From Anaeromyces robustus (lineage: Eukaryota > Neocallimastigomycota > Neocallimastigomycetes > Neocallimastigales > Neocallimastigaceae), in NCBI GenBank assembly GCA_002104895.1, contig MCFG01000322.1:18282-82281 (forward strand): a stretch of DNA of 64,000 nucleotides, written 5' to 3'. Shown here in pieces: positions 1,304 through 51,568 of this stretch. Numbering within the stretch: position 1 is the stretch's first letter; every line of letters starts with the position of its first letter. The notes below the pieces were generated by a model. The model did no database searches and was not told the DNA's origin. It saw only the letters and a program-made list of their open reading frames with translations. Made by a program: the position numbers and the translations under genes.

Positions 1304-2389
1304 CTATGATATTAAATATTTTTTGGTTTTAGATTCTTCTTCATTTTGAGTATAGTATTCTACTTTGTGTCTAGTGCCTCGGGAGCTTTCCTTTACTTTT
1401 TCCATAGAGTTCGCTTGGTTTGTGGTTTCTTTATCTGAGTTGTAGTCTATGACGAACTTCACATATTTCTCAGGATCTTCATCTGCTCTTGCACAGCAGA
1501 AACTTGACTGGCCATTACTTCCTTTGGAGTTATTGTTTTTATTTTTATATTCATTGTTTTTGCTATTTTTATTATTTCTATGATTGTTGTTTCTATATCT
1601 GCATACCTTTGCAGAGTGTCCTAATTTATTACATATTTGACATTTTATTAACCTTTTATTTTTATTATATTGTTGCGAACTGTTGGCTTCTGAATTCATA
1701 CTAATACCTTTGTTGTTTTGATTAAATTTCTGTTGTCTTTTCATTAGAAGGTATTTAGTATGTTGATGATCTTCTATTACGGTTTCACAACAGGTTTTCC
1801 AATCATTTTTGTGTTTTAGCAAATTCGACATATATATCAATTGTCTTGGTATAGCGTTGAATAGATAGTCGAATTTTTCTTTGTCTGATTTAGTTATCCC
1901 AAGATTTTCTAGTTCACTGAATATGTTGTTCATAGAGGAAATAAACATTGACATAGATGATTTTTTACTGTCAAAAATTAAATCATCTAACTCTTTTAAT
2001 AAAATTTCTTTTCTTTCACTATCAGCATATGAATAAGTGTCTTTTAGTATTTTATATATTTCATATGCTGTGCTGGTAATGAAGTTTAACTTTCTCTTGT
2101 TTTCATAGTTAATGCTGTTATTAATTAAAGTTTTGGCTGTATTGTCTTTTAATATCATTTCTTCGGTGATAATTGAGTGATAAACTTTGCTTTTGTCACC
2201 TCTGACTTTAATGTATTTACTTAAGTTTTCCTTCTTAATATTGTTTGAAGGAATTTTCTTAAGTCTTTCTTCTTCTATATATGAATAATCTTTATGTTCT
2301 ATAAGAAGAGTTAATTCTTCACTCCAGGTTTTGAAATCAGTACCTGGTTCTCCTAGGAGAAAATTTGTTTTTGTTTTTTGATATTCCAT
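1304..2389 (-). CDS. gag: Ty1/copia Gag polyprotein
   Basis: A 361-residue Gag with an ATG start at 2389. The N-terminal two thirds is a helical copia-type capsid region (W22 in FKTWSEEL and the later ENLGITKSDKEKFDYL stretch are typical). Near residue 250 is one CCHC zinc knuckle, CQICNKLGHSAKVCR, which would bind element RNA. The tail is Asn/Lys-rich. Its product would assemble cytoplasmic virus-like particles. A TAG stop separates it from the in-frame protease motif just downstream. The gag frame itself is undamaged, so this copy is younger than the copia remnant at 3.5-6.3 kb, or gag has been kept by chance. Confidence 0.85.
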   Translation of the reverse strand: MEYQKTKTNFLLGEPGTDFKTWSEELTLLIEHKDYSYIEEERLKKIPSNNIKKENLSKYIKVRGDKSKVYHSIITEEMILKDNTAKTLINNSINYENKRKLNFITSTAYEIYKILKDTYSYADSERKEILLKELDDLIFDSKKSSMSMFISSMNNIFSELENLGITKSDKEKFDYLFNAIPRQLIYMSNLLKHKNDWKTCCETVIEDHQHTKYLLMKRQQKFNQNNKGISMNSEANSSQQYNKNKRLIKCQICNKLGHSAKVCRYRNNNHRNNKNSKNNEYKNKNNNSKGSNGQSSFCCARADEDPEKYVKFVIDYNSDKETTNQANSMEKVKESSRGTRHKVEYYTQNEEESKTKKYLIS

Positions 2390-3345
2390 AGTGAAGATTT
2401 AATTTTAAAATTTTTAATTTCGAAATTTCAAGATTTTAAAATTTAAAGATTGAAATTTATAACTATTTTGTTATAAAATAGTAAATTTGAATATTATGAT
2501 TTTAAATGTTTATGTTTTAAATTATTAATAACATGAGTCGTAATGAGACTCTTAATCTTTTAATATTTTGTGAAATTGATCTTAAATGTTATATTTAGTA
2601 AACCTCATTTTATTTATATGATATAAATTATTACATTATATAAATAATATTCTGTAGTACAAGGAGTACGTAAAACAGAATTGTATGTTACATGAATACT
2701 ATTAATGTAGCAAGCCACATTTACACACAAAATATTATATTTATACTACATGATTAATAATTATACAATTTAAGTAAAACTATACTAATAAAATATTATA
2801 ACTAAGATTTACAATATTAAACTTTATTTTCAACAAAATTGTTAAAAAAAGTTATATTATTAATTATAAAATAAAATATTAAATTTAATATTTAATAAAA
2901 TAAAAATGAGTGAATATACTTATTAATTAAATATCTTAACCTGACTATTGTTTAAACCAAACCACCAAAATTTAACAAATTTCTCTTATATTTTTAGCCT
3001 TTAATTTTTCTATTTTATTGGACTAATAACGCATATCAATATTATCTTCTCCATATTCACCTTTAAGATATGCTATTATTGATTCAAGCTTTAATATATC
3101 TTTTGCAATGAAAGGATTAGTTGATTTTTTAATATAACCATTTTATTTTCTATGGTAGCATTAATTATTTCTTCTTTCTTTCTAACCCTTTAATAAATGA
3201 AGTATCCATAACTATGTTATGTTATACTTCAAAATTATCGCCGCTAAGGACATATATTAATATCATTATAACAAAATTACTAATTAAACAAATTTATATT
3301 TAATATTATAATTACACAAGAATTTAAAACAATAATTAATACATA
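2390..3345. other. AT-rich stretch, probable copia leader and degraded 5' LTR
   Basis: No intact gene. Lying 5' of the copia gag, it should hold that element's leader and 5' LTR, but I could not fix TG/CA boundaries. A minus-strand TATA-like box (TATAAATATA) lies at 2736-2745. Between about 3000 and 3240 the minus strand carries a short broken coding remnant (AKDILKLESIIAYLKGEYGE and neighbours, with stops) that I cannot assign to a family. Confidence 0.4.
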
Positions 3346-3384
3346 ATTTTCATGATTCGGTCCGTTGTAACGAATCATGAAAAT
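3346..3384. repeat. Perfect 14-bp inverted repeat, 11-nt loop
   Basis: ATTTTCATGATTCG at 3346-3359 is exactly complementary to CGAATCATGAAAAT at 3371-3384. It straddles the start of the LTR-like fragment at 3366. Confidence 0.85.
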
Positions 3385-3540
3385 GAGTAACCTATCTTAG
3401 TGGTTAGTAACTAAGATCATGGTTCGAACCTCTCGAGTTTGAAACCTCTCAATTCCAAAGTATCATTTTTTTATTATTTTTATTTTTACCATAAATTTTA
3501 CCAAACAAAATTATTCTGATTGGTTAAATTTTGATCACTA
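3366..3540 (+). mobile_element. LTR-like fragment with tRNA-like box pair
   Basis: It starts TGTAACGAATC like the NA LTRs. It then has CTTAGTGGTTAG (A-box-like) and GGTTCGAACC (B-box-like) in the same order and spacing as in the NA and Gyp-A LTRs, but in otherwise different sequence. ATCTTAGT pairs with ACTAAGAT. The right end is unclear because copia RNase H remnants begin near 3550. It is probably a truncated LTR of a related family. Confidence 0.5.
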
Positions 3541-3549
3541 TATATTCTA

Positions 3550-4704
3550 GTTTTATTCTGTTATTTTTAATATGATTTTGAGTAAAATAAAACTTTATAT
3601 TAATGTGTTTTAATTTAGAGTTTAGTTGTTCATTTTCAATTGTGGTTTTACTCGATAAATTATCTGTAAAAACTTTAATTGGTTTATTAAATTTAAATAG
3701 TTCCTGTAATTATATTTCTGATCCATAATACTTTTTTAGTGCATTCAGTAGTTCCAATATATTCGGCTTCAATTGTCTAAGTAGCTACTGTAGATTGCTT
3801 TTTAGAGGACCAGCAAATCGGATCGTTTCACATTAAAATAATGTGTCCTGAAGTAGATTTTTTATCTTTTGAATCTCCTCCTAAATCAGAGTCAGTGAAT
3901 GCAATAAATTCCCTTGTTCCAGTATATGTTATTTTATAATTTTTGGTTGAATTTAAATATATATATATATTGTTTACGTTATGCCAGTCGGAAATAGTAG
4001 GATTTTTTTGCAGTACGAGAAGCTTTGCTAACAGTAAATGAAATATCGGGACGACTACATTTTGATAAATATATTAGTGATCCAAGTGCGCTTTTGTAAG
4101 TTGTTTTGTCAAATAAATTTTTTTTTTTTTTTCATTTTGATTATCACCAATACATGGTGTTTTTGCTTTACGAGCATTATTGATTTTGAATTTTGATAAT
4201 ATTTTCAATATAGTTTGTTTGAGAAATGGCATATTTGTATCCCTTTTTCTCAACTTTTATTCCTAGTAAATAATTAATTTCTTCACAATTTGATATTTTA
4301 AAATTACTTTTTATTATTTTAATTGTTTTTTCAATCTCATTTGTTTTCCCGTGATAATCATGTCGTAAACTTATATACCTACGATACAGGTAGTATTTCC
4401 ATTTCGAGTTCTTTTAAATATGAAAGACTCAGAGATTAATTGTTCGAAACTATTGTTCTTTAGGAATGAAGTAATAGTATCATTCCATTGACGGCCTGAT
4501 TGCTTTAACCCGTACAAAGCTTTATTTAATTTCCAAAAACCTTTACCATAGTTTTCGTCACCCTGCGGAATTGTTACATATATATCTTTGTCTAATTTTG
4601 CATTAAGATAGGCGGCTTTAATGTCTAGTTGGAACATCTGCCAGTGAAGACATACTGCTAAAGAAATGCTGCTAAAGAAATGATTAGTATGATACTATCA
4701 ATAC
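3550..4704 (-). pseudogene. Ty1/copia reverse transcriptase and RNase H remnant
   Basis: Reading from 4637 the minus strand gives the copia reverse transcriptase core (QLDIKAAYLNA, then WKLNKALYGLKQSGRQW). After a gap it gives YKSALGSLIYLSKCSRPDI and the RNase H block FTDSDLGGDSKDKKSTSGH, CWSSKKQSTVAT and IEAEYIGTTE. There are several stops and frame changes, including TGA for the W expected in front of NDPICW and TAG within ATxTIEAEY. The 5' part of the same gene is at 5313-6257, the two being separated by a solo LTR. This copy is dead and is a different copy from the gag at 1.3-2.4 kb. Confidence 0.85.
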
Positions 4705-5312
4705 TGTAAAGATATTTAATGCCACAGCGTAAAATCCTTAAATGTAATTTAAGCCACTATACGTATTGATTAAAATTGCATAAAATAATTCTGTAAAATT
4801 ATTGTGAAACAATAATTTAAATCAATTAAATAAAGTTCTAAACAAAATAATTATTAAATTTTAATTTTTAATTTATAAAATTTTTCATTATTTTTAAATT
4901 TAAAATATATAATAAATATATTATTAATATTAGAATAATAAATAAATAATAAATGAATTCAATTGAAATTATTTAGTCTTAGTTTTAATAGTTAATTTAA
5001 AATTTTTATTTTTAGAAATAATAAATAAATTTATTATATAATAAAGTTTAGTTAGTTAGATAGTCCCTAAATAAATAGAAATTAAATATACATAAATTAG
5101 TATAATATATAATAAATATAATTATGAAAAAAAATAAAAATACTTCAAAATTTCTTAAATTGAAAGGTGTAATTGTTATTAAATTTGATTTTAATTATTT
5201 AAATATTAATAAAAAATTATTATAATAAAACAAATCCTTATTTCGTTATTTTTACTATTTTAGTGTTTGTGTTCTTTTGTTATTGTAATCTCTTTCTAAT
5301 AAATCTTTTACA
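4705..5312 (+). mobile_element. Solo LTR, Gyp-B-like family
   Basis: It begins TGTAAAGATATTTAATGCC and ends AAATCTTTTACA, and matches the LTRs at 9475, 20585 and 8206 (the last inverted). It splits the copia reverse transcriptase between TFSPTL and QLDIKAAYLNA. The flanks AATAC and AATAT look like a 5-bp target duplication with one later change. No internal element sequence remains, so it arose by LTR-LTR recombination. Confidence 0.85.
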
Positions 5313-29930: not shown

Positions 29931-30569
29931 TGTAAAGGATTGTTAAAAAATAGATTACAACAACAATTTAAAAACACTAACACGAAAATTAAAAAAAATA
30001 TTCTAATAAAAATATATTTTGTTAAAATATATGTTTTATTAATTTTCTGAAAATTAAAAAATTTAAAATAATAACAATTACACCTTTCAAAATTTAAGAA
30101 ATTTTGAAGTATTTTTATATTTTTTTTATAATTATATTTATTATATATTATACTAATTTATTTATATTTAATTTCTATTTATTTACGGACTATCTAACTA
30201 ACTAAACTTTATTATTTAATAAATTTATTTATTATTTCTAAAAATGGAAATTTTAAATTAACTATTTAAACTAAGACTAAATAATTTCAATTGAGTTCAT
30301 TTATTATTTATTTATTATTCTAATATTAATAATATATTTTATTATATATTTTAAATTTAAAAACAATGAAAAATTTTATAAATTAAAAGTGAAAAAATTA
30401 ATATTTCACAAAATAAATTAATAATTTATTTTGTTTTGAACTTTATTTAATTGATTTAAATTATTGTTTCACAATAATTTTACAGAAATATTTTTTGTAA
30501 TTCAGTTACTTGAAAAGTGGCTGAATTTAAAATTAAAGATATTATAATGTGGCGTATAATATCTTTACA
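29931..30569 (-). repeat. Gyp-B 3' LTR
   Basis: TGTAAAGG...CTTTACA on the plus strand, 639 bp. Differs from the 5' LTR mainly by a T-run length change. Confidence 0.93.
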
Positions 30570-30601
30570 ATCTCTCTCCTTAAAGTCGAGCTCCTGCGAG
30601 A

Positions 30602-33600
30602 TTACAATTTTCTTGGTTCAATGTTAATAAAAACAGGTCGAGGCTTATGTCTAATATAATAGTCATTATTAAAGTCATCCTCTTCAGAACTCTTACCTTT
30701 TCTAGATCTTTTAAGGTATTGTTGAATCAATTGCTTGTCTGTTACTTGGTCTTCTTTGATCCACGATTGATCTACTGGATCGTTACCTTTCCAGGACATA
30801 AGATAATAAGTTTCACCTTTATAGGTTTTCATATCGATTATCTTATCCGGACTTTTATCGATTGAGTCAACAGTTAGATGTGTATTTCTTCTAGGTCTCA
30901 AAGATCTACCTTTAAATTCATTTTCGTGATATGGTTCTAAAAGAGAAACATGAAAGACAGGATGACAACGCATATCACTAGGAAGATCTAATTCGAAAGC
31001 GAGAGGACTAACTTTTTTAGTAATAGTAAAAGGACCCATCATTTGATCTGCTAATTTTTTCTTGCTATTTTTTATATTGAGACCTTTGTATAACCACACT
31101 TGTTGACCCACTTCAAAACTAGGAGCATTCAATCTTCTTTTGTCTGCATACTTTTTATAGGTTTTCTTAGCATTATTCAAGTTTTCTTTAAGGAGTTTAA
31201 TATTATTTTCAATATCAATGACTCTTTTTTCAGCGCTATTTGGATTATCAAAGGATGGAATTTCTGGAGAGAATTTAGGATTAAATCCATAATTGGAAAA
31301 GAAAGGTGATTGTTTAGTAGATTGGTGGATAGTATTATTATAAGAAAATTCAGCAAAAGGTAAAATATCCACCCAATTATTTTGTCTTTCGTTAATAAAG
31401 CATCGAAGATATTGTTCCAAGATTCCATTCACCCTCTCCGTTTGACCGTCAGTATGAGGATGATTAGCAGTGGAAAGAGAATGATTAATATCAAGTAATT
31501 TACACATTCTATTCCAAAATTCAGAAGTAAATTGGGAGCCTCTATCAGAAATAATGGAATCTGGAAAACCATGAAGACGGAATATATTGTTAATGAATGA
31601 ATCAGCTGCGATTGAAGCAGTAGGCAGACAACGTAAAGGAATAAAATGAGCCATCTTAGTTAACCTATCGACTACAACCATAATAGTAGTCATTTCTCTT
31701 GATTTAGGAAGTTCAACTATGAAGTCCATTGAAATTTCCTTCCAAGGTCTTTCTGGAGTGGACAATGGGGAGAGTAATCCATAAGGTTTATGTTTTGGAA
31801 CTTTTGACTTGCAACAAATAAAACAAGACTTAATAAATTTTTTAATATCTTTTCTCATTTTAGGCCACCAAAAATTTCTAGAGATTAATTCGAATGTTTT
31901 CAAAACACCAAAATGGCCTGCTGTTATCGAATCATGATGAATTTCAAGAATTTTGCCACGAAGATTATACGGAACGTAAATGAGATTATTAAATAACAAG
32001 AAACCATCTCCGTCTAATTTTAAACAATCCATCTTTTTAAAGGGAGCATTCCCGTTCCTTCCTTCTAATATGAATTCTCTAGCTTTATTATAAAATTCGT
32101 CTGATTTTAAGTTTTTAAGTATAGAACTGACAATAGTTTTATCTTCAATGTTGCAAACACGAATAACACAACAAGAAGTAATTCTGTAAACATTAAAAAG
32201 ATGATCACTTCTACGAGATAAAATATCGGGTTTACCTGATTTCTTTCCTGCACGATAAATAAGTTCGAAATCAAATCGTGACAAGAATTCATTCCATCTA
32301 ATTTGTCTTTGCGAAAGCATCTCAGGTTTTCTTGGGAATGTGAGATTTTTGTGATCAGTATAAATAATAAACCGTTGTCGAGCGCCTTCTAAGTAATGAC
32401 GCCATTCTTCTAAAGCAGTCTTGATAGCAAGTAATTCTTTATCATAAATTGGGTAGTTTCTTTGAGCTTGATTGAGGCTTTTCGAAAGAAATGCAATGGG
32501 ATGTAACTTTCCATCGAATTCTTGAGAAAGAATTGCTCCAACAGCGAAATTACTTGCATCGGTTTCAACAATGAATTGTTGATTACTATCAGGGTGTTTT
32601 AAAATTGGAGCAGAGGTAAAGAGATTTTTTAAAGTATCAAAAGCATTTTGTTGTTCATCACTCCAATTATAAGGAACATTTTTTCTTGTAAGTTTGTGTA
32701 ATGGATTAGCAATTTTTGCAAAGTCTTTAATAAAAATACGGTAGTAATTGCATAATCCAATAAATGATTGTATCTCTTTGACATTTTTTGGAACAGGCCA
32801 ATCTAAAACTGCTTTTACCTTTTCTTTATCCATTTCTAAACCACGTCTAGAAATTACATATCCAAGAAAGGTTGTTTCTTCTACATCAAATTCACACTTT
32901 TCCAAGTTTAAGTATAAATTATTTTCTAACAATTTAATTAATACCTTTGTTACATGAGTATGATGTTCTTTAATATTCTTAGAGTATATGAGGATATCAT
33001 CAATATAAGAGATTACGAATTCATCAAGATAATCACTTAAAACATCATTTATAAAATGTTGAAATGTAGCTGGAGCATTTTTTAACCCGAAAGGCATTAC
33101 TAAATATTCATAATGACCATAACGAGTACGAAATGCAGTTTTGAATTCATCTCCTTCTTTGATTCTTACTAAATTATATGCAGATTTTAAGTCTAATTTA
33201 GTAAATATTTTGGCTCCTTTGACTCTATCTAATAAGTCACTGATTAAAGGAAGAGGATATGAATTGCGGATGGTCATTTCATTAAGTTTTCTATAATCAA
33301 CACACAAACGTAAAGAACCATCCTTTTTTTTAACGAAAAGAATAGGTGCTCCAGCAGGAGAAGTAGATTTTCTAATAAACCCTTTTTCTAAATTCTCTTT
33401 TAAATATCTTTTTAATTCCTCTCTTTCAATTTCATTTAAAGAATATAGTGGTCCGTAAAACAAACTACTATTTTCTTTTAATTTTATTTCACAATCGTAA
33501 TCACGATGTGGAGGCAATTTCTTACAATTTTGTTCATTAAACACATCAATAAAATCAATATATTGTGATGGTACAGTGACCATTTTTTCATCTTTATTTA

Positions 33601-35329
33601 TAATATTTAATTTTTTAATAACTCTACATGCATAAGATATTTTACTTTCTTTTTTAATACATGAATTTTCATTACAAGAATCATTATTACATTTATTTTT
33701 ATCTTTTTTATTACTAAAATCGTTATTATTACTATCACTAATTTCTTCACTAATTTTACTATCACTAATACTATCATTAATGCTATCAATATCACTAGTA
33801 CTATCGCTATTACTATCAAACATAAAACTATCATTAACATCACTTTCATAGTCAACATCACTATCATTGATTGTACGAACTAATCTTCCTTTGAAATATT
33901 CTTCTCTCTCTTCTTCGTCTTCAATAGACCAGTTAGCTTTTGAAATAGAGGGTTCTTCCTTAAACGTCTTCTTAACCTCATTCCTCTCACCTTCATCTTC
34001 AGCAGGTTCTTTTCCTTTTCTTGATATAATTTTGATAACTGGTTTCTTTTCTTTCTTTGAGTTTCTTTTTCTCTTTCCATAATTGCAGAAACGTGCACAG
34101 AAACCAGAACTGAAAGCTAATTTCTTATTGTCGTGGTAGTTTGAGGGGCAGTGCTTTTCGATCCAAGGTAAACCTAAAATGATATCGACATCAGGGATTC
34201 GAAGGACATAAAATTTAATAAGTTCATAGTGGTTTCTTTTTCTTAAAATACATTTTTCTGTTTCTTTTTTAACCTTGGAAATTCCATAGCCTAACCCAGA
34301 CACTCCAAAAGGTTCCTTTATTTGATTTATATTAATACCGATTAATTTAGCAAATTCTGGGTGAATAAAATTAAGGTCTGCCCCAGAATCAATGAGTACC
34401 CTAGCTTTGTGTTCGTTCACCTCATTAGTACTAATATAAAAGTCAATCACGTTATTCCTTTCTTCTTCTACAGTAGCCTTTTTTAAGTTTGATTTATGTA
34501 AACCCACGGTAGCACCAGGTTCAATTCCTTTCTCGCGTAAGGTTCTCTTAATTATTTTCATTTGTTTCGGTCTTTTCTTATTCGGGCAGTTGAACCTCAT
34601 GTGTCCTTTTTGTTTACAGTAGAAACAAACTCCTTTCTTCCTTTCTTCTTCAAAAGTTTTAGTCTCTTCTCTGTATGGATTTTTATACGGCTGATAATAC
34701 TGGGAGGTCCTTGGATTTTTTCTTATTCGATACAGGTCAATGTCCATAGGATCATTACCTGTTTGATGTTGATAATACGTTTCCAACGTATCATTTCTTT
34801 TAATCAAATTTTCGACTGTTACAACAGTTCTAAACAGTCTTTCTAGGGAATTGGGATTTGGATCTACTACAGCAATCTTTTCCCTCAATTGCTGTTTTAA
34901 ACCTCTAATAAACATATGAATTTTAGCGCTTTCATTAAAATTTGAGCTCTGACCGATTCTCTGAAATTCGGTTATATACTCAAAAACATATCCGAAGCGC
35001 TTTTGTCTGAGGTTGCATAATCTCTCATTCGCTACCACTGCTTCTGTAGTGTAGTCTCCGAAATTTGATCGGAGTTCCCTAACAAATTCATGGTAGTCGT
35101 TAAGCAATGGGCTGTTGTTTCTTCTTAACACTGAGGCCCATTCTAAAGCTTTTCCAAACATATACGACATGAGGAATCTGATTTTATTTTCATCTTCCCT
35201 GAACCGTTCTGGATTGGATTCCATTGTTAATTCTGCTCGAGTTAGGAATCCATCTAAATCTCCGTGCTTCCCTGTGAAAATAGGGGGTTCGTTTACTAAT
35301 TTGAAATGTTGATTGTGTTGTTCTCCCAT
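30602..35329 (-). CDS. gag-pol: Gyp-B Gag-Pol polyprotein with chromodomain
   Basis: One uninterrupted frame. It can be read from a GTG at 35392 (1596 residues), but the ATG at 35329 is the likely start because Gyp-B2 begins at the equivalent MGDNNNQH. Domains in 1596-residue numbering: Gag about 22-250; zinc knuckle C256-C259-H264-C269; protease D335 (LIDSGAD); Asp/Ser/Asn-rich linker 508-575; reverse transcriptase with YIDD at 796-799; RNase H from D944 (VETDASNFA); integrase zinc module H1153, H1160, C1190, C1193; catalytic D1223, D1283, E1319; GPF block near 1453; chromodomain about 1516-1561 (YYLMSWKGNDPVDQSW). It makes all proteins for particle assembly, cDNA synthesis and integration, the chromodomain probably steering to heterochromatin. 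All key residues are present, so it is presumably active. Confidence 0.95.
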   Translation of the reverse strand: MGEQHNQHFKLVNEPPIFTGKHGDLDGFLTRAELTMESNPERFREDENKIRFLMSYMFGKALEWASVLRRNNSPLLNDYHEFVRELRSNFGDYTTEAVVANERLCNLRQKRFGYVFEYITEFQRIGQSSNFNESAKIHMFIRGLKQQLREKIAVVDPNPNSLERLFRTVVTVENLIKRNDTLETYYQHQTGNDPMDIDLYRIRKNPRTSQYYQPYKNPYREETKTFEEERKKGVCFYCKQKGHMRFNCPNKKRPKQMKIIKRTLREKGIEPGATVGLHKSNLKKATVEEERNNVIDFYISTNEVNEHKARVLIDSGADLNFIHPEFAKLIGININQIKEPFGVSGLGYGISKVKKETEKCILRKRNHYELIKFYVLRIPDVDIILGLPWIEKHCPSNYHDNKKLAFSSGFCARFCNYGKRKRNSKKEKKPVIKIISRKGKEPAEDEGERNEVKKTFKEEPSISKANWSIEDEEEREEYFKGRLVRTINDSDVDYESDVNDSFMFDSNSDSTSDIDSINDSISDSKISEEISDSNNNDFSNKKDKNKCNNDSCNENSCIKKESKISYACRVIKKLNIINKDEKMVTVPSQYIDFIDVFNEQNCKKLPPHRDYDCEIKLKENSSLFYGPLYSLNEIEREELKRYLKENLEKGFIRKSTSPAGAPILFVKKKDGSLRLCVDYRKLNEMTIRNSYPLPLISDLLDRVKGAKIFTKLDLKSAYNLVRIKEGDEFKTAFRTRYGHYEYLVMPFGLKNAPATFQHFINDVLSDYLDEFVISYIDDILIYSKNIKEHHTHVTKVLIKLLENNLYLNLEKCEFDVEETTFLGYVISRRGLEMDKEKVKAVLDWPVPKNVKEIQSFIGLCNYYRIFIKDFAKIANPLHKLTRKNVPYNWSDEQQNAFDTLKNLFTSAPILKHPDSNQQFIVETDASNFAVGAILSQEFDGKLHPIAFLSKSLNQAQRNYPIYDKELLAIKTALEEWRHYLEGARQRFIIYTDHKNLTFPRKPEMLSQRQIRWNEFLSRFDFELIYRAGKKSGKPDILSRRSDHLFNVYRITSCCVIRVCNIEDKTIVSSILKNLKSDEFYNKAREFILEGRNGNAPFKKMDCLKLDGDGFLLFNNLIYVPYNLRGKILEIHHDSITAGHFGVLKTFELISRNFWWPKMRKDIKKFIKSCFICCKSKVPKHKPYGLLSPLSTPERPWKEISMDFIVELPKSREMTTIMVVVDRLTKMAHFIPLRCLPTASIAADSFINNIFRLHGFPDSIISDRGSQFTSEFWNRMCKLLDINHSLSTANHPHTDGQTERVNGILEQYLRCFINERQNNWVDILPFAEFSYNNTIHQSTKQSPFFSNYGFNPKFSPEIPSFDNPNSAEKRVIDIENNIKLLKENLNNAKKTYKKYADKRRLNAPSFEVGQQVWLYKGLNIKNSKKKLADQMMGPFTITKKVSPLAFELDLPSDMRCHPVFHVSLLEPYHENEFKGRSLRPRRNTHLTVDSIDKSPDKIIDMKTYKGETYYLMSWKGNDPVDQSWIKEDQVTDKQLIQQYLKRSRKGKSSEEDDFNNDYYIRHKPRPVFINIEPRKL

Positions 35330-35509
35330 ATTGCTTCGTTCTTCTAATGAGAGATTCTCCAAAATACTATTAATAATAATTAAGTCTGACACTTTGTATG
35401 AATTGACTTAACTAACTTATTTATTATATTTTATGAAAAGTCGACCAGGACGCTATCCCGATTGCAATGGGTGTCGGTCGAGTTTTCTTAAATAATAAAT
35501 AAATAAAAA

Positions 35510-35557
<48 letters not shown>

Positions 35558-35791
35558 GTCTTCCAAACCACGTACTTTTACTAGTAGCAAGGCAGTTTCT
35601 TGAACAAGTTATATTCTAACTGGCAGCTTCTGGACTGGTAGCTTTCTAACTGGTAGTTTTCTAACTGGTAGTTTTCTAACTGGTAGTTTTCTAACTGGTA
35701 GTTTTCTAACTGGTAGTATTCTAACTAGTAGCTTCTGGACTGGTTGTTGTAACGTATTTTTTTTTTTTTTAAAATCAAAGGTAATTGTTAT
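35330..35791 (-). other. Gyp-B 5' leader
   Basis: Contains the primer-binding region next to the LTR (35781-35792), about seven 15-bp repeats with GGTAG (sense CTACC) at 35625-35745, a T-run of about 42 (35512-35554), and GGTGTCGGTCGAG near 35470, shared with Gyp-B2. Confidence 0.8.
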
Positions 35792-35980
35792 TGTAAAGGA
35801 TTGTTAAAAAATAGATTACAACAACAATTTAAAAACACTAACACGAAAATTAAAAAAAATATTCTAATAAAAATATATTTTGTTAAAATATATGTTTTAT
35901 TAATTTTCTGAAAATTAAAAAATTTAAAATAATAACAATTACACCTTTCAAAATTTAAGAAATTTTGAAGTATTTTTATA
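35781..35980 (-). promoter_or_regulatory. Gyp-B TATA box, self-primer and primer-binding site
   Basis: TATAAAAATA (sense) at 35971-35980, then about 30 bp downstream GTAATTGTTATT (35931-35942, sense), then after the LTR end the complementary AATAACAATTAC (35781-35792, sense). The layout is that of Tf1: the transcript 5' end folds back on the leader to prime minus-strand cDNA. Confidence 0.7.
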
Positions 35981-36431
35981 TTTTTTTTTATAATTATATT
36001 TATTATATATTATACTAATTTATTTATATTTAATTTCTATTTATTTACGGACTATCTAACTAACTAAACTTTATTATTTAATAAATTTATTTATTATTTC
36101 TAAAAATGGAAATTTTAAATTAACTATTTAAACTAAGACTAAATAATTTCAATTGAGTTCATTTATTATTTATTTATTATTCTAATATTAATAATATATT
36201 TTATTATATATTTTAAATTTAAAAACAATGAAAAATTTTATAAATTAAAAGTGAAAAAATTAATATTTCACAAAATAAATTAATAATTTATTTTGTTTTG
36301 AACTTTATTTAATTGATTTAAATTATTGTTTCACAATAATTTTACAGAAATATTTTTTGTAATTCAGTTACTTGAAAAGTGGCTGAATTTAAAATTAAAG
36401 ATATTATAATGTGGCGTATAATATCTTTACA
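35792..36431 (-). repeat. Gyp-B 5' LTR
   Basis: 640 bp. At its sense start is a perfect 12-bp hairpin (36397-36428) with loop CGCCACAT. Its outer end cuts the virus-like island. Confidence 0.92.
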
Positions 36432-38060
36432 CAGACCCAGAATATGCAGGATATTTGAAAATACCGTTTAATCAATGTAAGAAAAGGTACGATTGGTTTT
36501 GCACCGGCTAGTAATATATTTATAGTAAGTTTTTATAAAATAAAGACTCGTCAAACAAACCAAGTTGGTTATATAATAGGTGCTGTTTATGTTAAAAGAA
36601 GACCTAGTACATACACAGTACATAACGATAGATATATATATTTTTTACCTACTAGTGATTATTTAAATGTTGGCGGTGTTAACAATGAATTAATATCTAG
36701 AATTGTATTAAATAAAGACGGACACAACGCGAAAACTGGTGCATATTATTATAATTATTTTTCAGCCCCATTTTTAGATTCTCTTGATATTAATGATATT
36801 CCTTATGAAGACAAAGATATCGGTATTACTGTTTAATAACCCCTCTATTTTGTTTATATATATACTAACTTGCCTTTATAATTAGATAGATCTTCCACAG
36901 AAAATGAGACAATTCCTGTTAATCCTGATATACAAAAAGCTTTAACTGTTTATAACGCGTTACCTGTTTCAGAATCAATTACGTTATCAGATGTATTAGT
37001 ACCTAGATTGAATATGGAAATAAATCCATTGGTTTTACAAGTATTTGATGGTTTAGAAGATAAAGTTGTTTCTTCTGTGGATTTAAATGATATTAAAGTA
37101 TTAGATATTATGACATTACCTACTGTAGTCACCAATAATGGAGAAGCTGTTGTAGATTTTGTAGAAATGTTCGGAGCGCCTTTATCAAGGTTTAAATTTA
37201 ACGTTAATGTTCCAACTTCTTCCTCTTTACAGTTAGAAAATAAAAATTTAACAATTACTTCAAATGGTACACAAACAATTATTCCTAGTACAGGTTATGA
37301 CGCTTTGGCTAGTGTAGCATTAACAACTAATGTATCGCCCAATTTAGAAGATGTTATTTATGTGCGAAACGAGGATATTATAAATAAAGATGCCCCAATT
37401 CAAATCACTCCAAGTAGTGGTTATGATGGGCTTAGTAGAGTACAAGTTAACCCAGTTAAATTAGAATCTTATGCACAAAGAACAATTACTACCAACGGAA
37501 CACATACTTTGTCTCCAGATACTCTAGGTGGTTTAAAGCTCGGATTTTTAGGTGATGTAACTGTAGACGTAAATGTTACACCAACTATGAATTTAGAAAC
37601 GAAACAATTGTCTATAAGAAATAACGGCTCAATGACTATAGTTCCGGATACAGGATACGATGGAATTAGTTCTGTACAACTTGGTATAAGTGTACTACCA
37701 AATTTAACGAATGTTTCAAGGACTTATACCACTAATGGTACTTATACTATACAATTAGATACGACTCAGTATGATGGAATTGACACTGCTACAGTAAATG
37801 TGAATGTTCCACAGACTGGTTTAAATACTACATTAAGCAGATTTGGAGCGAGGAATAACTCTTTATCAATTTATACAGAAAATGATTTAAATAAACACAT
37901 TTCAAATTTTAATGTTTCTATTAGTGCTGATGGGGGTTATATACTCGTAAAACCACCTGTTGGAGCATATAGTTTTTATGAAATTATTTATTATGTTAAT
38001 ATTTCAAGTTACACTTATGAATTTGAAGTGACAAATTTCATGTTCATTTTCGTTTATTAA
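36432..38060 (+). CDS. Putative virion protein gene with intron(s) and phage-like beta repeats, 5'-truncated
   Basis: Main frame: 36459-36822, a 63-nt intron (36823-36885), then 36886-38060. Without splicing the first part stops at 36834. The first part (GYIIGAVYVKRRP, GAYYYNYFSAPF) is unassigned and could be the end of a capsid domain; this is inference. The second part, 391 codons, has five or six repeats of about 40 residues with the pattern T-x-NGT-x-T, GYDG(I/L)SSV and V-x-V at 37008-frame residues 78-109, 117-150, 157-190, 199-229 and 237-267. Such repeats are familiar from tail-associated proteins of gut Firmicutes phages. The last 19 codons overlap the rep gene. The ATG at 37014 is not needed if the intron is real. 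A possible second intron is at 36477-36525. Confidence 0.55.
36477..36525 (+). other. Candidate mini-intron (49 nt)
   Basis: GTAAGA at the left, TAGTAAT at 36509-36515 and ATAG at the right. Removing it joins the 36434 frame to the main frame in phase. Alternative: the 36459 frame is read straight through and a frameshift lies just upstream. Confidence 0.35.
36823..36885 (+). other. Spliceosomal intron (63 nt)
   Basis: Starts GTATTAC, has a perfect TACTAAC branch site at 36863-36869, and ends TAATTAG 17 nt beyond the branch A. It contains the TAA that ends the upstream frame. Removal leaves G + AT, a complete codon, and keeps both flanking frames open. Confidence 0.72.
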
Positions 38061-39125
38061 TTGTCCTACATTAGCCATTTGTGTTATTATATCAGTTAAA
38101 CTATAATCTTTTTGTTTTTGATCTTCGAAAATTTCATTTTTACCAAGTTTAAGTGATGAAATAAATTTATATGCTTCATTTAGGTTAGATACAGTTAGTC
38201 TATGTTTAGTATTTATAAGTTCAAGTTCAGCAATTCTATTGTTTTGTATATGTATTAATTGTTTTAATCCTTTAATAATACTTTTATATAAAGTATAATC
38301 TTCCCAATATTTACTATTATTAAAGTCATAATGCATAGTACAATAATTAATAGAAATAACACTTTCAGAAGTTGTAGAGATTGTTTCTAAAAAGTAGTCT
38401 TCGTCTTTTTGTTGAAAATCTTCGTAATAAGCGAAACTCTTGTTAGTTTCTAGGGAGTTATTATGATTTCTTTCATCGATGATAGATAACAATTTCATTC
38501 TTCTTTCTTTCTTTTGGTTTTCGCGGTCAGCTTTTACAATAGAATGAGTTGAAAAATATTTTTTTAGTCTGTCTTCTCTTGGCCATTCAAAAAAGTTTCC
38601 CAATTTGGTTAATTCAACTGTAAATAATCTTCTATGTAAAGGTTCATAGTTTTCAGTGACCAGTTCACCGTTTTCTTTTGTACACAATTTTTTTAAAGAA
38701 TAATTACTTGTCATAATAACCCAGAATGGTCTAATTTTGTTTATAGTAGCGCCCTTAACTTCAACTGGAAAAGGGTATTGATCACAAAGTTGTTTTAAAA
38801 GATTACCGGAATGACAAACCCATTGTGGTTCCAATTCTTCGATAACTACTATTTTTTCACCCTTGTAGCTATCCCACCATTTGTTAGATTTTTTATTGTA
38901 TACTTCAAGTTTTTGATATTCTAGATTATTTTGTCCACAATAGATAAACCAAAATTGTTGTAAGTGGTAGATAATGTCTTCAATACAATGAGACTTACCA
39001 GTACCAGTAGGACCCCAAATAAGAATAAAGAAATCGCGAAAAAAGTTGCCATATTTATTGTTTAGAAGCATATTTTCAGTTATTAAATTTTCAACATGTA
39101 TTTTTTTTAATTTTGTATCAAATTT
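38004..39125 (-). CDS. rep: CRESS-type replication protein, superfamily 3 helicase part, 5'-truncated
   Basis: 355 residues from ATG 39071; the frame stays open upstream to the LTR at 39126, so the true start is lost. Walker A GPTGTGKS (20-27), Walker B KIVVIEEL (73-80), motif C IMTSN (119-123) and an arginine-finger-like HRRLF (146-150) are the superfamily 3 helicase set of circular Rep-encoding ssDNA viruses. Walker B has EE where DD or DE is common. The N-terminal HUH endonuclease expected in such Reps is missing, removed at the island border. After the helicase comes an unusual extension of about 190 residues with a coiled-coil-like stretch (IQNNRIAELELINTKHRL). It would unwind replicating DNA if complete; as it stands it is probably non-functional. 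Confidence 0.8.
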   Translation of the reverse strand, partial: KFDTKLKKIHVENLITENMLLNNKYGNFFRDFFILIWGPTGTGKSHCIEDIIYHLQQFWFIYCGQNNLEYQKLEVYNKKSNKWWDSYKGEKIVVIEELEPQWVCHSGNLLKQLCDQYPFPVEVKGATINKIRPFWVIMTSNYSLKKLCTKENGELVTENYEPLHRRLFTVELTKLGNFFEWPREDRLKKYFSTHSIVKADRENQKKERRMKLLSIIDERNHNNSLETNKSFAYYEDFQQKDEDYFLETISTTSESVISINYCTMHYDFNNSKYWEDYTLYKSIIKGLKQLIHIQNNRIAELELINTKHRLTVSNLNEAYKFISSLKLGKNEIFEDQKQKDYSLTDIITQMANVGQLINENEHEICHFKFISVT

Positions 39126-39517
39126 AAAAAATATTTTAACTAAAAGTTTTACACCTATTTATACTTTTTGCGGAAAAATAGTTTTAAAAATAAAAGTTCA
39201 TAAAAAATAATAAAAATTGCTAGAAACTAAGATATTTTGTTATAAAATGAATCTCATAGAAAAATAAAGAAATATTATATAATTTTTTCTTAAAGTTTCT
39301 AATTTCATTCCATGTAATTCTATAAAGAAATACAGAAATAAAATACAGAAACAAATACAGAATAAAATACAGAAATTTATAATAAATAAATTTAAAATAA
39401 AATTTTTATAAAATTTGGAACAAGGTGTGAGTCGAACCCAGAGTGTTCGCCCAGATGGTCATAGTTACTAACCACTAGACCATGGTTACTATTTTACTGA
39501 TTGAGAGATTCGTTACA
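39126..39517 (-). repeat. NA2 3' LTR, U3 part only
   Basis: It ends normally (sense TGTAACGAATC at 39517) but stops on the other side at AATATTTTAACT, just after the TATA region and before the self-primer. Confidence 0.85.
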
Positions 39518-39839
39518 TGGTCCTCCTTCAGGATTCGGATACCAGACGAATCTTAAAACTAAACTATACTAAGAAAAATTTTAACTAAATTTTTAAACTA
39601 TACTAAAACTATACTATATAGGTGTAAAAATAATATAATTTGATATTAATAAAAATACATGAATATTAATAAAATACATGAATATTAATAAAGTTTACAT
39701 GGTATTAATAATAATAATAAGCTAAACTAAACTAAACTAAACTAAGATTTAAACTAATAATAATACTAAGTTTGATATTAATAAAAATATTGATAGAATA
39801 AGATTAATAGTTGAGATTCATTATTTAAGTTTTTCTTTT
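39518..39839 (-). other. NA2 3' untranslated region
   Basis: Contains the purine tract, the pre-tract hairpin (GATTCG/CGAATC) and TTAATAAAAATACATGAA-type repeats. No gene. Confidence 0.75.
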
Positions 39840-41720
39840 TCATTTTGATTTATTTTTAACAAAGTAACAAAGTAAATTTTCAGGTGGTTTATCTTCATAA
39901 GGGAGATATGCATCAAGTTTAAATTCTTTAAATTTGTTGTTTTGTTTTCTTTTGTATTTAATTGATTTTGAATTACAGATTACAAAGTATGAAGAGTTGT
40001 TAATAATTTCTTTTGAATTTGCTAAGAAAAAATTTTGACATGTAGAATATTTATTTGATTTTGAATAAAAATATGAATTTGATTTATTTTTATCATTCAC
40101 ACTCTCCTTCGAAAAGATTGGATTATTGGGTTTTGAAAGATTAATATTTTGAATAGGTTGATTTTGAGTATAGGATTTCAAACAAGAATTAGGATTATCA
40201 GAGGAAAAAGATTGATTACTAGGATTACAGGAATTATTACTAAGATTAACAGTATTACAAGAATTTGTACCAAGGTTAACAGGATTATAAGAATTTTTAC
40301 TAGGAAGTACACAAGAGTTAGAAACATGAATTGGTTTATTATTATTTTTCAAAGGTTGAGAATTACTTGATTTTGTACGTTCAGAGTGGAAACAAGAAGT
40401 ATTACAGGAAGATTTATTGCCAGAGTGATTATCAAGATTATTATTATTTTTAGAATGAGGTTTACAAGATTTATCAGATTTTGTATTTTGAGAATTCGTC
40501 ACGAATGAATTTGGGAGTATTAAACAATTTGAAAGACAGTAATTTGAATTGAAAGTTATTTCTTTAGTTGTAAAATTGATAATGGGATTGTGAGTTACGA
40601 GCCAATCTATTCCAAGAATACCACAATACGAAGGTAGATCCACAATATAGAATTCTGTTTTACAAAGGTGATTTTTATATTTCAATGAGATGGGAAACGT
40701 TTTACCAAAAATTGTTTGATTTCCGGCTACTCCAGAAACGGCAGGAAAAGTAGAATCAGAATCAAAAGGAATATTGTTTTCTTTAGCAAAGTGTATATCC
40801 ATAAGATTTAATTGAGAACCTGAATCGATGAGTAGTTTAGCATTGCAAGAAGAGTTTAAAGTTTGTAGATTGAATTCGGCAACTGGAGCATTCAAAGATG
40901 GATCATCAGAAAGTCTAGGTCTTGATTTTGGTTTGGATTCTGGATTAGAAATAAAAGCATTGCTGGAAGAGGGTTTATTGTCATCTTCATTCACTTTATT
41001 CTTTAAAGGGCAATTATTAATTTGATGATTTTTTGATCCACAGTAGAAACAAAGATGTTCTTTTCTTCTTCTTTCTTTTTCTTCACGAGTTATTGTTTCA
41101 TTAGATTTATTCGAAGCAAATTGAAAAGAGTTAGTATGACGACCAAAAGAATGATTACTTGAATTATTTGATTTAAAATATTGATTATGAGTAGAAAGTC
41201 TTAAATCTATACGAGAAGCTATGGTTTGAAGAGAGAATAAGGATTGTGGCCCAGGAAACATTTCTAAGATTCTAGTTGCAATATTGTCGTTTAATCCTGC
41301 GAGAAAAGCATCCATTTTAGCAGCTTCATTCCAAGAAGAGTCATCTGCGTATTTATTGAACTCCAGGATATAGCTTCTTACATCTCCAAGACGTCTCTGT
41401 TTAATGGTTCTGAGCTTTTGGTTTGCTATGAAGGTTGAATCATAATTTCCAAAGGTAGCTTTAAACTTGGATATAAACGCTTCATAGTCATCTAAACATG
41501 GGTCCACATTTTCAATTAAAGTTGCGGCCCAATTCATTGCAGAACCGTAAAGTCTGGAAATGATGTATGCAACCTTAACTGGATCTTCAGAAAATTTTTC
41601 TGGTTGCAACATGAAGACAAGGTTCATTTTTGCAAGGAAGCCTTTAAAGAAACGACGGTCTCCAGCGAATCCATCTTTGTACATAACATTTAAATTGAAA
41701 AAATTATCTTCGTTTATCAT
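39840..41720 (-). CDS. gag-pro: NA2 Gag-protease protein
   Basis: 626 residues from ATG 41720. Gag, zinc knuckle (CFYCGSKNHQINNCP) and protease (LLIDSGSQLNLMDIHFA) as in NA1. The Cys-Asn repeat section is shorter and different (NLGTNSCNTVNLSNNSCNPS). It keeps a segment, KYSTCQNFFLANSKEIINNS, that NA1 and NA5 have lost by a deletion between two SKS-coding repeats. Ends in the shared DAYLPYEDKPPENLL tail. The frame is fully open. Confidence 0.9.
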   Translation of the reverse strand: MINEDNFFNLNVMYKDGFAGDRRFFKGFLAKMNLVFMLQPEKFSEDPVKVAYIISRLYGSAMNWAATLIENVDPCLDDYEAFISKFKATFGNYDSTFIANQKLRTIKQRRLGDVRSYILEFNKYADDSSWNEAAKMDAFLAGLNDNIATRILEMFPGPQSLFSLQTIASRIDLRLSTHNQYFKSNNSSNHSFGRHTNSFQFASNKSNETITREEKERRRKEHLCFYCGSKNHQINNCPLKNKVNEDDNKPSSSNAFISNPESKPKSRPRLSDDPSLNAPVAEFNLQTLNSSCNAKLLIDSGSQLNLMDIHFAKENNIPFDSDSTFPAVSGVAGNQTIFGKTFPISLKYKNHLCKTEFYIVDLPSYCGILGIDWLVTHNPIINFTTKEITFNSNYCLSNCLILPNSFVTNSQNTKSDKSCKPHSKNNNNLDNHSGNKSSCNTSCFHSERTKSSNSQPLKNNNKPIHVSNSCVLPSKNSYNPVNLGTNSCNTVNLSNNSCNPSNQSFSSDNPNSCLKSYTQNQPIQNINLSKPNNPIFSKESVNDKNKSNSYFYSKSNKYSTCQNFFLANSKEIINNSSYFVICNSKSIKYKRKQNNKFKEFKLDAYLPYEDKPPENLLCYFVKNKSK

Positions 41721-43265
41721 TGCTGTTTTATTTTTGGTTTTAACTAAGAATTCAAATTGTTTATTAAGGTAAATTTAAATTTTAATTTCGCTTTTTATGC
41801 CTTACAACTTAAAAATAAACCGGCAAAAGCTACTAACTAGAGGTATATACTAGACCTCGAAATAAATATTAAAACTATATAATTAAAGTCGCTTCACCTT
41901 CACGACCAACCTCCAGCCTTCGGTGACTGAAGTTCCTTATTTGCCAGAGCTTACGAAGATATTGAACTTGAACGTCCGATATTGCAGTGCTTTTTATCAC
42001 ACAACAATTCCTTCCCTCAAGAAAGCGTGCTTTTCACACTACCCACTTTTATCAATACCTAAGTAACTAATTGACTATAGTTTCTTAACCTACTAGAAAC
42101 TAGTTACTTACGCCAAACACTCTGTATATGAGCTCTAAACGCTCCTAGTATATTTTATAAATAATTTACCTTAAAAATTAAATAAATATTTGATTACACA
42201 GAAGTTTACAAAGATGTTTTTTTCTTTTAATAATTTTTTCTATTTCACACTGCTGTTCTTTCAGTTTATCAACTTACTCGAGCTGAATGTAGGACTTACG
42301 TCTGTGCCTACCAGCGAGGGCCAATGTGAAACTCGAAATTTAATTATAAAAGAAAAAAGACAGTATAAAAATAAGGATCCTCAGAATGATTCTCCTTATT
42401 AAAAATTTTATTAAGTTTATAAATATATATTTTTTTTTTTTTTTGACTAGAAAAAATTTATTTGAAAAATAATTTAATTTATCTATTCTATAATTTATTC
42501 ATTCACTTAATTTTTTATATTAATTTATATAATTTATTAATATTCATTCACTTAATTTAATTTATTTAATTTTTTAATTTAATTTTATTAATTTTCCGAA
42601 AATATCACTGGCAAGGTAGTACAAAATCTTTTTCAAATGCTATGGGGTACACTATTTTTATCTTTGGGTAGTACAAGGAAATTTTTTCAAAATGTTACAC
42701 AAGGAAAAATTTTTTAACTATTCTAGGGTGGTACAAAATTTCCAATAACTAAGGTTTCTAAGTAGTTCAAAGGCAATTCAAAGTAAAGTAGCTAAGACTA
42801 AGGAGAGAAACTAGGCGGTAGTTCTAAGAACTTGGTTAAACTAAGGACGGGTGGAATCTGGGTGCTTTATTTTTTTACTTTATCAAGAAAAATTTTTATT
42901 CGAGAAGGATACTTGATAGGATGGATACTAGAATTATTCAAGAAAAGTAGACAAAGGGTAAACAAGAAGTAGACAAGACTAAGACAAGACTAAAACTAAG
43001 AATTATACAAGGTAGATAACTAGGAATCAAAGACTAAGGTAGAAGTATCCAAAAACTAAGGCTAAAAGATTATTGCTAGAAAAGGTAGTATCCAGAAACT
43101 AGGAAAAAGTAGTATTCTAAGATTAGACTAAAAGAAGTAGTATCCAAAGGTAGTTCTAAAAGGCGGTAGAATCCAATAAAAGGTAGAGACTAAAAATTGG
43201 TAGCAGATTCCAAAATTTTCGACACTAAGGTTCCAGGCGGTGTTTCTTTTGTTGGGTGCTTTTAT
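41721..43265 (-). other. NA2 5' leader
   Basis: Same organisation as the NA1 leader. The three-way-junction RNA lies at 42243-42331. The T-run near 42430 is shorter than in NA1. Confidence 0.8.
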
Positions 43266-43968
43266 TGTAACGGAACGGTAGTTCCAATATTACAATTGAC
43301 ACCAATATTGAAAACGTACACGAAAAGAAAATAAAATAAAAGAAAGTTAATTATACTTTGTAATATCGGAACACCTTTCCTTTGTTAACCCGGAAGGTCG
43401 GCGTCGATATATATTAGTATAATTTTAATTTATTTTTTATTTAAAATATGTTTTATTAGAATGTAGTTTTATTAATTATTAAAAATTAATAATAACTAAT
43501 CTTTGTAGTATTTCAAACTACTTATGAATTAATTATTACTAATATATATAAAGTTATAAAAGAATAAAAGCACAAAGAAAAATATTTTAACTAAAAGTTT
43601 TACACCTATTTATACTTTTTGCGGAAAAATAGTTTTAAAAATAAAAGTTCATAAAAAATAATAAAAATTGCTAGAAACTAAGATATTTTGTTATAAAATG
43701 AATCTCATAGAAAAATAAAGAAATATTATATAATTTTTTCTTAAAGTTTCTAATTTTATTCCATGTAATTCTATAAAGAAATACAGAAATAAAATACAGA
43801 AACAAATACAGAATAAAATACAGAAATTTATAATAAATAAATTTAAAATAAAATTTTTATAAAATTTGGAACAATGTGTGAGTCGAACCCAGAGTGTTCG
43901 CCCAGATGGTCATAGTTACTAACCACTAGACCATGGTTACTGTTTTACTAATTGAGAGATTCGTTACA
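43266..43968 (-). repeat. NA2 5' LTR
   Basis: 703 bp with a diverged region at 43310-43440 compared with NA1. Confidence 0.9.
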
Positions 43969-44180
43969 ATTATTATTATTATTATTATTATTATTTATTA
44001 TTATTATGTTAAGGATTTGAATGGATTATAGATATAAGCCACATTATATCTATTAAGTATTTATTATTCAGCATGTTTATGCGCCCCAAATCCTTATACA
44101 ATTTAATTATTATTAATTTTATTAATAATACAGTTGAATATAAATTATACTTTTATTTTATTAACAAATTATATTCTTAT
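43969..44180. other. Spacer between head-to-head NA2 and NA3
   Basis: An ATT microsatellite (about 43969-44005), then a small inverted repeat AAGGATTTG...CAAATCCTT bounding about 85 bp with AAGCCACATTATAT, then AT-rich sequence. No gene. Possibly a tiny MITE. Confidence 0.45.
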
Positions 44181-50527: not shown

Positions 50528-51128
50528 TGTAATGATTGAGTGGAGTTTATTAGCAACAGGCCCGCAAGCTTGAGTAACTCGAAATAATGGACAACACGAA
50601 AGATCTAAGAAAGGTAAAAGACACAGTTAATTAAAAATATGTTTTATAATAAAATGTTTTATTAATTTTTATTAAATTTAAAATATAATAATTTATTAAT
50701 TAGTTAGTGTAATATTTCGAATTACTTATTTAACTAGTTAATAAAAACGCGAAGAAAAAATATTTCTTTTGTCGAAATTTTACACGTATTTATACTTTTT
50801 ACGGAAAAATAGTTTTCGTTTGTAAAAAGTATTAAAAGTTCTAGAAACTTAGATTTTTTGATTTAAAATGAATCTCGGATAAATAAAATTTAAAATAAAA
50901 AGAAAAACTAGAATCTTTTAGAATTTAATCGATAAGATTTTATCGATTAAATTCGAGTAATTTCTTCAACAAGGAAAAGTGTAGAAAATTTTGATAATAA
51001 ATTTTTAAAATAAAATTTTTCCAAAATTGGAAAGAGTGAGAGTCGAACCCGAGAGGTTCGGCCTGATGGTTCTAGTGTCTGACCACTAGACCATGGTTAC
51101 TATTTTACTAATTCTGAGTTTCGTTACA
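50528..51128 (-). repeat. Gyp-A 3' LTR
   Basis: TGTAATG...CGTTACA on the plus strand, 601 bp. The sense start carries the hairpin CTAGTG/CACTAG and GGTTCGACTC. Confidence 0.92.
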
Positions 51129-51568
51129 TGGTCCTCCTCTAGGATTCGGATACCAGACGAATCTCAAAATTAGGCTAAACTATACCATAAAAATTTTATT
51201 AATATTTATAAATTATTTTTGTGTAAAATTTCGAATTTATATAATGATAAAAATTTTGATAATAATAATAGAGAATTACATGATATTAATAATAAAATTA
51301 CATGATATTAATAATAAAATTACATGATATTAATAATAAAATTACATGATATTAATAATATAATTACATGAATATTGATATTAATAAAGTTATAATATTT
51401 TAATAGTAATAAAACTAACTAAATTTTAAACTAAGTATAAATATATTTTGACTATAGTAATAGAATAAATTTGATATTAATAAAGTAAATAATATTTAAA
51501 TTTTTTTACAGTAATATTAATAATTAATAGAGTGTTTAAGATTCATTTTTAAAATCTAAGTTTTTTCT
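51129..51568 (-). other. Gyp-A 3' untranslated region
   Basis: Polypurine tract and hairpin (51143-51163) next to the LTR, then four direct repeats of about 21 bp (AATTACATGATATTAATAAT) at about 51274-51360. No gene. Confidence 0.78.

What the first reader, a model, noticed from the sequence alone, without database searches (positions are those of the whole stretch)
36432..39125. Endogenised CRESS-DNA-virus-like genome in a retrotransposon-rich eukaryote
Seen: Walker A, Walker B and IMTSN motif C in the order of a superfamily 3 Rep helicase, facing a second gene with 57-bp tail-to-tail overlap. Known: convergent rep and cap genes are standard in circular Rep-encoding ssDNA viruses. Inferred: a linearised viral genome integrated here, and the two LTR elements later removed both gene starts and the origin region. 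It gives a candidate host record for an unknown virus group. The Rep C-terminal extension of about 190 residues with a coiled coil is unusual.
Basis: partly seen in the sequence, partly recalled or inferred. Interest (0 to 1): 0.9.

Follow-up and report, generated by a model that had tools for sequence, protein, structure and literature searches.

The report
Gut-fungus virus fossil with spliced capsid
A stretch of an anaerobic gut-fungus genome is a broken, rearranged remnant of a small circular DNA virus; sister remnants and a related free genome carry a real capsid gene whose stop codon sits in a splice signal, as if splicing adds a long tail to some capsid molecules.

Summary
In detail: a 355-aa CRESS-type Rep helicase faces a second ORF with a 57-bp overlap, between two LTR elements, in the anaerobic gut fungus Anaeromyces robustus. 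The viral reading is right, with three changes. (1) The second gene is not the capsid but a repeat-rich protein. (2) The tail-to-tail layout is a scar: both genes lose C-termini at one junction near 38,030; sister copies on contig C130 carry Rep, capsid, repeat protein and a fourth ORF on one strand. (3) The right border is an LTR cut by about 312 bp; the left is an intact LTR end without target-site duplication. Viral pieces lie on 10 contigs, with HUH domains, TAGTATTAC hairpins (3 of 7 Rep starts) and a jelly-roll capsid. Metagenomes hold many unnamed relatives; one cattle-duodenum contig looks circular, about 7.6 kb. In two C130 copies and that contig the capsid stop TAA lies inside GTAAGT, and a short intron would join capsid and extension ORF in frame. 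Most likely: endogenised members of an undescribed CRESS group of gut fungi that make a capsid and, by splicing, an extended capsid. Splicing is inferred; no RNA was seen.

The parts
36432..39126 (.). virus-derived stretch, 2695 bp, between two LTR elements (36432-36822 assigned by position only)
   Evidence: LTR-family matches stop at 36431 and start at 39127; 36432-36900 has no second copy in the genome search
36432..36822 (+). open stretch upstream of the repeat ORF, in part used as exon by the public gene model P0023; origin unresolved
   Evidence: no significant match among 205 fetched proteins apart from P0023 itself (best others E 0.022 and 0.033); profile of extension C-terminal domain E 0.048
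36823..36885 (+). predicted 63-nt intron (GTATTA ... CTAAC ... TTAG)
   Evidence: coordinates; the public model P0023 (BCR32DRAFT_284619) joins the same two pieces
36886..38033 (+). repeat-rich protein = putative capsid extension, C-terminus missing (ORF runs on to a stop at 38060)
   Evidence: 59% to the C130 copy over 283 aligned residues, homology ends at L023:6315 = 38033; 63 proteins
38025..38033 (.). junction of two viral pieces in inverted orientation
   Evidence: Rep homology ends at 38025, repeat homology at 38033
38004..39071 (-). Rep SF3 helicase ORF, 355 aa; homology runs upstream of the ATG to about the LTR border at 39126; the HUH domain (about the first 131-137 residues) and about the last 38 residues are missing
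29931..36431 (-). Ty3/Gypsy element with chromodomain, polyprotein 30602-35392; LTRs 29931-30569 and 35792-36431, 99.84% identical, no target-site duplication
39127..43968 (-). second Ty3-like element with gag 39840-41720; outer LTR 39127-39517 cut by about 312 bp against the family LTR of about 704 bp (about 43265-43968)

Best explanation
The window holds a rearranged 2.7-kb piece of a CRESS DNA virus that infected the lineage of Anaeromyces robustus. Shown: Rep helicase; sister copies with HUH domain, canonical origin hairpin, jelly-roll capsid, repeat protein and a fourth ORF; circularly permuted gene order; a circular-looking free relative. Inferred: the virus replicated by Rep-driven rolling circle from the TAGTATTAC hairpin; broken copies were joined into the genome several times; here two pieces (a 3'-cut repeat gene and a 5'- and 3'-cut rep) were joined head-on, and retroelements later reached both sides. 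Also inferred: the repeat protein in the window is the second exon of a capsid-extension protein. Unspliced mRNA gives the capsid; removing an intron whose GTAAGT covers the capsid stop codon gives capsid plus a repeat-rich, perhaps fibre-like tail.
Against: No RNA reads were available, so splicing is untested. GTAAGT is missing at the capsid ends of L021 and L039; in L037 it is there, but I found no in-frame 3' site by eye. The window's own upstream exon is not recognisably capsid. No HUH domain, capsid or ORF4 was found in the window, and no nonanucleotide in 36432-39126. 4 of 7 Rep upstream regions lack the hairpin (L022b was looked at over 250 bp only). 113 of 114 counts related sequences. 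L050 has a different Rep-like ORF with no Pfam or PDB match and no clear hairpin, so its kinship rests on capsid and extension. The repeat-protein fold model is poor (pLDDT 49.6).
Confidence: 0.82

Rival explanations
1. The convergent layout in the window is native: this virus lineage has rep and the repeat gene tail to tail, unlike the C130 lineage.
For: 57-bp overlap with both frames open; on C459 ORF4 (+) also faces Rep (-), so inverted orders occur in the genome.
Against: Both proteins lose conserved C-terminal sequence at the same place: repeat homology ends at 38033, Rep homology at 38025. The C130 repeat protein continues for 63 residues beyond the last aligned one and P0002 for 38.
Confidence: 0.08
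2. The loci are not viral but a Rep-bearing plasmid or transposon lineage of gut fungi.
For: Two Rep genes in tandem on C388; at several loci only Rep was found.
Against: Linked Arg-rich capsid genes with Circo_capsid similarity on C130 and C222, the C222 one with a jelly-roll model, and 439 capsid relatives in the protein search.
Confidence: 0.06
3. The capsid extension is made by readthrough or frameshifting rather than by splicing, or the downstream ORF is a separate protein.
For: Luteoviruses use readthrough and Orsay virus a frameshift for capsid extensions (recalled, from no call). In L050 the extension lies in the capsid's own frame.
Against: In L017 and L018 the frames differ from the capsid's; in L050 further stops lie between the ORFs; GTAAGT covers the stop in all three; open frames of 61, 254 and 129 codons precede any ATG.
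Confidence: 0.25

Closest known systems
Circoviridae (circoviruses, cycloviruses)
   Same: Rep with HUH and SF3 domains, best PDB matches circovirus-type Reps (that 7lar is porcine circovirus Rep is recalled); TAGTATTAC hairpin; capsid weakly matches Circo_capsid and circovirus capsids are among the fold matches
   Different: at least four genes, one-strand order on C130, about 6 kb from hairpin to the end of ORF4; long Rep C-terminal extension; repeat-rich capsid extension. The circovirus pattern of about 2 kb and two genes is recalled
CRESS viruses of Entamoeba and Giardia
   Same: gut CRESS viruses tied to microbial eukaryotes (PMC7493932: abstract start, one passage)
   Different: host here is a fungus; the text has no hit for Anaeromyces, Piromyces, Neocallimast or rumen
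Genomoviridae and other ssDNA mycoviruses
   Same: ssDNA viruses of fungi; a review lists ssDNA for the gut fungus Pecoramyces (PMC10224137, passages), and a transcriptome study reports a gemycircularvirus there (PMC9501391, passages)
   Different: Rep here is circovirus-type by its best matches, with a different gene content
Luteovirus readthrough coat protein and Orsay virus capsid-delta fibre (recalled)
   Same: a minor capsid protein with a C-terminal extension; capsids of Orsay virus and luteo/polerovirus type are among the fold matches
   Different: RNA viruses; readthrough or frameshift instead of a splice site over the stop codon

Membership tests
CRESS virus (Cressdnaviricota type) | Rep with SF3 helicase | tested here: met
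   window ORF
CRESS virus (Cressdnaviricota type) | N-terminal HUH endonuclease | tested here: met
   not found in the window; present in relatives: PF02407 E 3.7e-10 in P0002, profile matches to Rep endonuclease chains; sister copies align to it
CRESS virus (Cressdnaviricota type) | nonanucleotide origin hairpin | tested here: met
   3 of 7 Rep upstream regions in the genome; none in window 36432-39126; none clear in L050
CRESS virus (Cressdnaviricota type) | jelly-roll capsid protein | tested here: met
   P0086 of C222; no capsid in the window
CRESS virus (Cressdnaviricota type) | circular single-stranded virion DNA | not testable with these tools
   circularity is only indicated: permuted order on C130, 141-bp terminal repeat of L050; strandedness unseen
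Circoviridae | small genome with two ambisense genes, rep and cap | tested here: not met
   four genes on one strand on C130; C222 does have divergent cap and rep
Circoviridae | capsid scoring as Circo_capsid at the curated cut-off | tested here: not met
   C222 and C130 capsids about 23 bits against 36.2; best relative E 2.6e-8, its bits against the cut-off not shown
Genomoviridae | geminivirus/genomovirus-type Rep | tested here: inconclusive
   best PDB matches are circovirus-type; no tree with named genomoviruses was possible

The most novel reading that the evidence does not exclude
An undescribed, abundant group of large (about 6-7.6 kb) circular ssDNA viruses of anaerobic gut fungi uses a splice donor laid over the capsid stop codon to make two structural proteins from one gene: a plain capsid and a minor capsid carrying a long repeat-rich spike for binding the host. 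The capsid-plus-spike cassette moves between viruses with unrelated Reps.
Probability: 0.55. Interest if true: 0.85.

Novelty: new variant of a known kind. Interest (0 to 1): 0.7.

Why it matters
It ties a large set of nameless metagenome proteins to a host, the anaerobic fungi that help herbivores break down plant fibre. It gives testable anatomy (origin, Rep, capsid, extension, fourth ORF) for viruses that I did not find described in the papers I could search. If the splice reading holds, it is a compact way for a small DNA virus to put a tail on some capsid subunits, a trick I recall only from RNA viruses, by readthrough or frameshifting. It also warns that convergent gene pairs in endogenous fragments may be rearrangement scars.

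Tried and rejected
Convergent rep-cap as native layout: rejected (junction at 38025-38033). Facing gene as capsid: rejected. IMG/VR: 5 of 5 scans that ran gave no relative (Rep; capsid). Phages with the repeat protein and with Rep, plasmids with Rep: none. PHROGs: only weak AAA-type matches to Rep, none to the repeat protein. ARAGORN and Rfam (gathering threshold) on the window: none. Two weak Rep matches elsewhere in the window (P0017, E 0.006-0.007, 23% identity, near 15.3-15.7 and 47.6-48.0 kb) I take as chance. Contig-length coincidences, read off the tables: Rep P0007 and capsid P0111 share longest-contig length 6599; repeat P0058 and capsids P0146 and P0153 share 6126 (P0058 and P0146 also contig number and sources); P0078 and P0171 share 4515. 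Coincidences at 1677, 1817, 2227 and 2490 do not fit by size or source, so this is only a hint that the genes share contigs. A comparison used a wrong offset for the C459 locus, and its 95.6% match was LTR; two searches showed this. The phmmer step printed no result (probably stopped by gap signs); it was run properly. The profile was swamped by the repeats; one search used the end domain only. The nature of 36432-36822 stayed unresolved. The repeat-protein fold model is too poor to use. A Rep phylogeny with named families was not possible; the tree holds unnamed metagenome Reps, A. robustus copies and one Piromyces protein. Paper searches for prior description; beyond the Pecoramyces mention nothing was seen, but only listings, abstract starts and passages were looked at, and subscription papers and preprints are not held. 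sought capsid splicing or readthrough in CRESS viruses; its listing of 20 of 58 papers showed no title on it.

Full report
What is there. The window is G000:C249:18282-82281 of a 70.2-Mb, 769-contig genome. A public protein on a contig of the same length, 82,281 bp, is BCR32DRAFT_284619 of Anaeromyces robustus and is identical to the window over its match, so the host is an anaerobic gut fungus. Between two Ty3/Gypsy-type elements lies a 2,695-bp stretch, 36432-39126. On its minus strand is a 355-aa SF3 helicase. On its plus strand is a repeat-rich ORF that meets it tail to tail.

Borders. On the left the LTR family stops at 36431; the two LTRs of that element are 99.84% identical, but the outer flanks TAAAA and CAGAC do not form a target-site duplication. 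On the right the family LTR is about 704 bp, and the copy that touches the virus starts only at 39127, about 312 bp inside it. So the right junction is a deletion or recombination point. No HUH domain, capsid or ORF4 piece was found elsewhere in the window, and no nonanucleotide in the viral stretch.

The facing gene is not a capsid. It consists of repeats of about 35-40 residues (by eye), with NGT, GYDG and V.V.VP motifs. Its closest relatives are on contig C130, 55-66% identical over long stretches. There the order on one strand is Rep, an Arg-rich capsid ORF with one internal stop, the repeat ORF and a fourth ORF; a second C130 locus has capsid, repeat, ORF4 and then the C-terminal part of Rep. 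The two orders are circular permutations, as expected from a circle opened at different places (inference). In the window repeat homology ends at 38033 and Rep homology at 38025; about 63 and 38 residues are missing. The 57-bp overlap is therefore best read as a fusion scar.

A free relative. A capsid search of bacterial and archaeal genome contigs found one relative, a 7,761-bp contig in a cattle-duodenum bin (JAFOMI010000020.1), probably mis-binned. Its ends share an exact 141-bp repeat, so it is probably a circle of about 7,620 bp. Its capsid is 37% identical to P0086, and the downstream ORF shares the C-terminal domain of repeat proteins (jackhmmer E 2.8e-20). Its Rep-like ORF has no credible Pfam or PDB match; by eye it has Walker-like motifs and looks nearer to geminivirus Reps (untested).

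Capsid extension. In L017, L018 and L050 the capsid stop TAA is part of GTAAGT; 0 of 14 non-capsid stops printed have it. Introns of 70, 68 and 81 nt would join the capsid in frame to the repeat/extension ORF, though the three lengths differ modulo 3. The extension ORFs stay open for 61, 254 and 129 codons before any ATG while the other frames hold 8-33 stops. L037 has GTAAGT at the capsid end without a stop; L021 and L039 lack it. So GTAAGT is seen at 4 of the 6 capsid ends read at DNA level. Of 118 metagenome capsids examined (P0087-P0205 without P0097, from the 120 listed of 439), 114 have the conserved C-terminus and 113 of these end in a residue that has a codon NNG, as NNG-TAA-GT demands; about 69% would be expected from composition; Reps gave 7 of 17 and repeat proteins 42 of 59. 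Four rows without that C-terminus were left out: P0140, P0145, P0184, P0204. These capsids are related, so the figure is not a probability. P0184 shows a capsid and such a repeat as one protein. In the window the repeat ORF follows a predicted 63-nt intron that the public gene model also uses, but the piece before it matches no capsid significantly.

Mechanism. Most likely the virus made a plain capsid from unspliced mRNA and a minor capsid with a repeat-rich tail from spliced mRNA. The tail could sit outside the shell and bind the fungal surface. The gene anatomy is shown; splicing, location and binding are inferred.

What is known. Use of endogenous CRESS Reps for host assignment is established (PMC7493932, abstract start and one passage; wider background recalled). 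A survey of early-diverging fungi reports RNA mycoviruses in Neocallimastigomycota; 'ssDNA' and 'CRESS' do not occur in its text (PMC7482067, passages). A review lists ssDNA for Pecoramyces (PMC10224137, passages), and a transcriptome study reports a gemycircularvirus there (PMC9501391, passages). UniRef already calls two A. robustus proteins 'ATP-dependent helicase Rep' and names a third as a CRESS-DNA virus Rep. So single Reps were flagged by automatic annotation; the capsid, repeat protein, origin and gene order were not found described in the searches.

Noticed in passing
L017:6936-7835, L018:2504-3400: ORF4 of L017 carries PPxY and LPxY-like motifs (PPPYSDIS, LPSYSPG); L050's last ORF has LPTYEEA. 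Such motifs recruit ubiquitin ligases in other viruses (recalled).
   Followed up: no
L022 (C388) 1886-4864: two Rep genes in tandem, about 79% identical in DNA, with little spacer
   Followed up: partly
P0184 (metagenome protein, 525 aa): capsid directly fused to a DGTYYARNDGLDGWSSVKVKVP repeat and a further domain
   Followed up: partly
window 35433-37946: public gene model P0023 starts inside the LTR element, so its first residues (about 55) are probably spurious
   Followed up: partly
L050 378-2297: 639-aa Rep-like ORF with Walker-like motifs but no credible Pfam or PDB match, beside a homologous capsid: the capsid cassette with a different Rep
   Followed up: partly
window 29931-36431: recent Gypsy element (LTRs 99.84%) without target-site duplication
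   Followed up: partly
window 39385-39571, 43836-44022, 50996-51182: the LTR end holds a tRNA-like stretch (GGTTCGACTC on the minus strand at the first place); ARAGORN finds no tRNA gene
   Followed up: no
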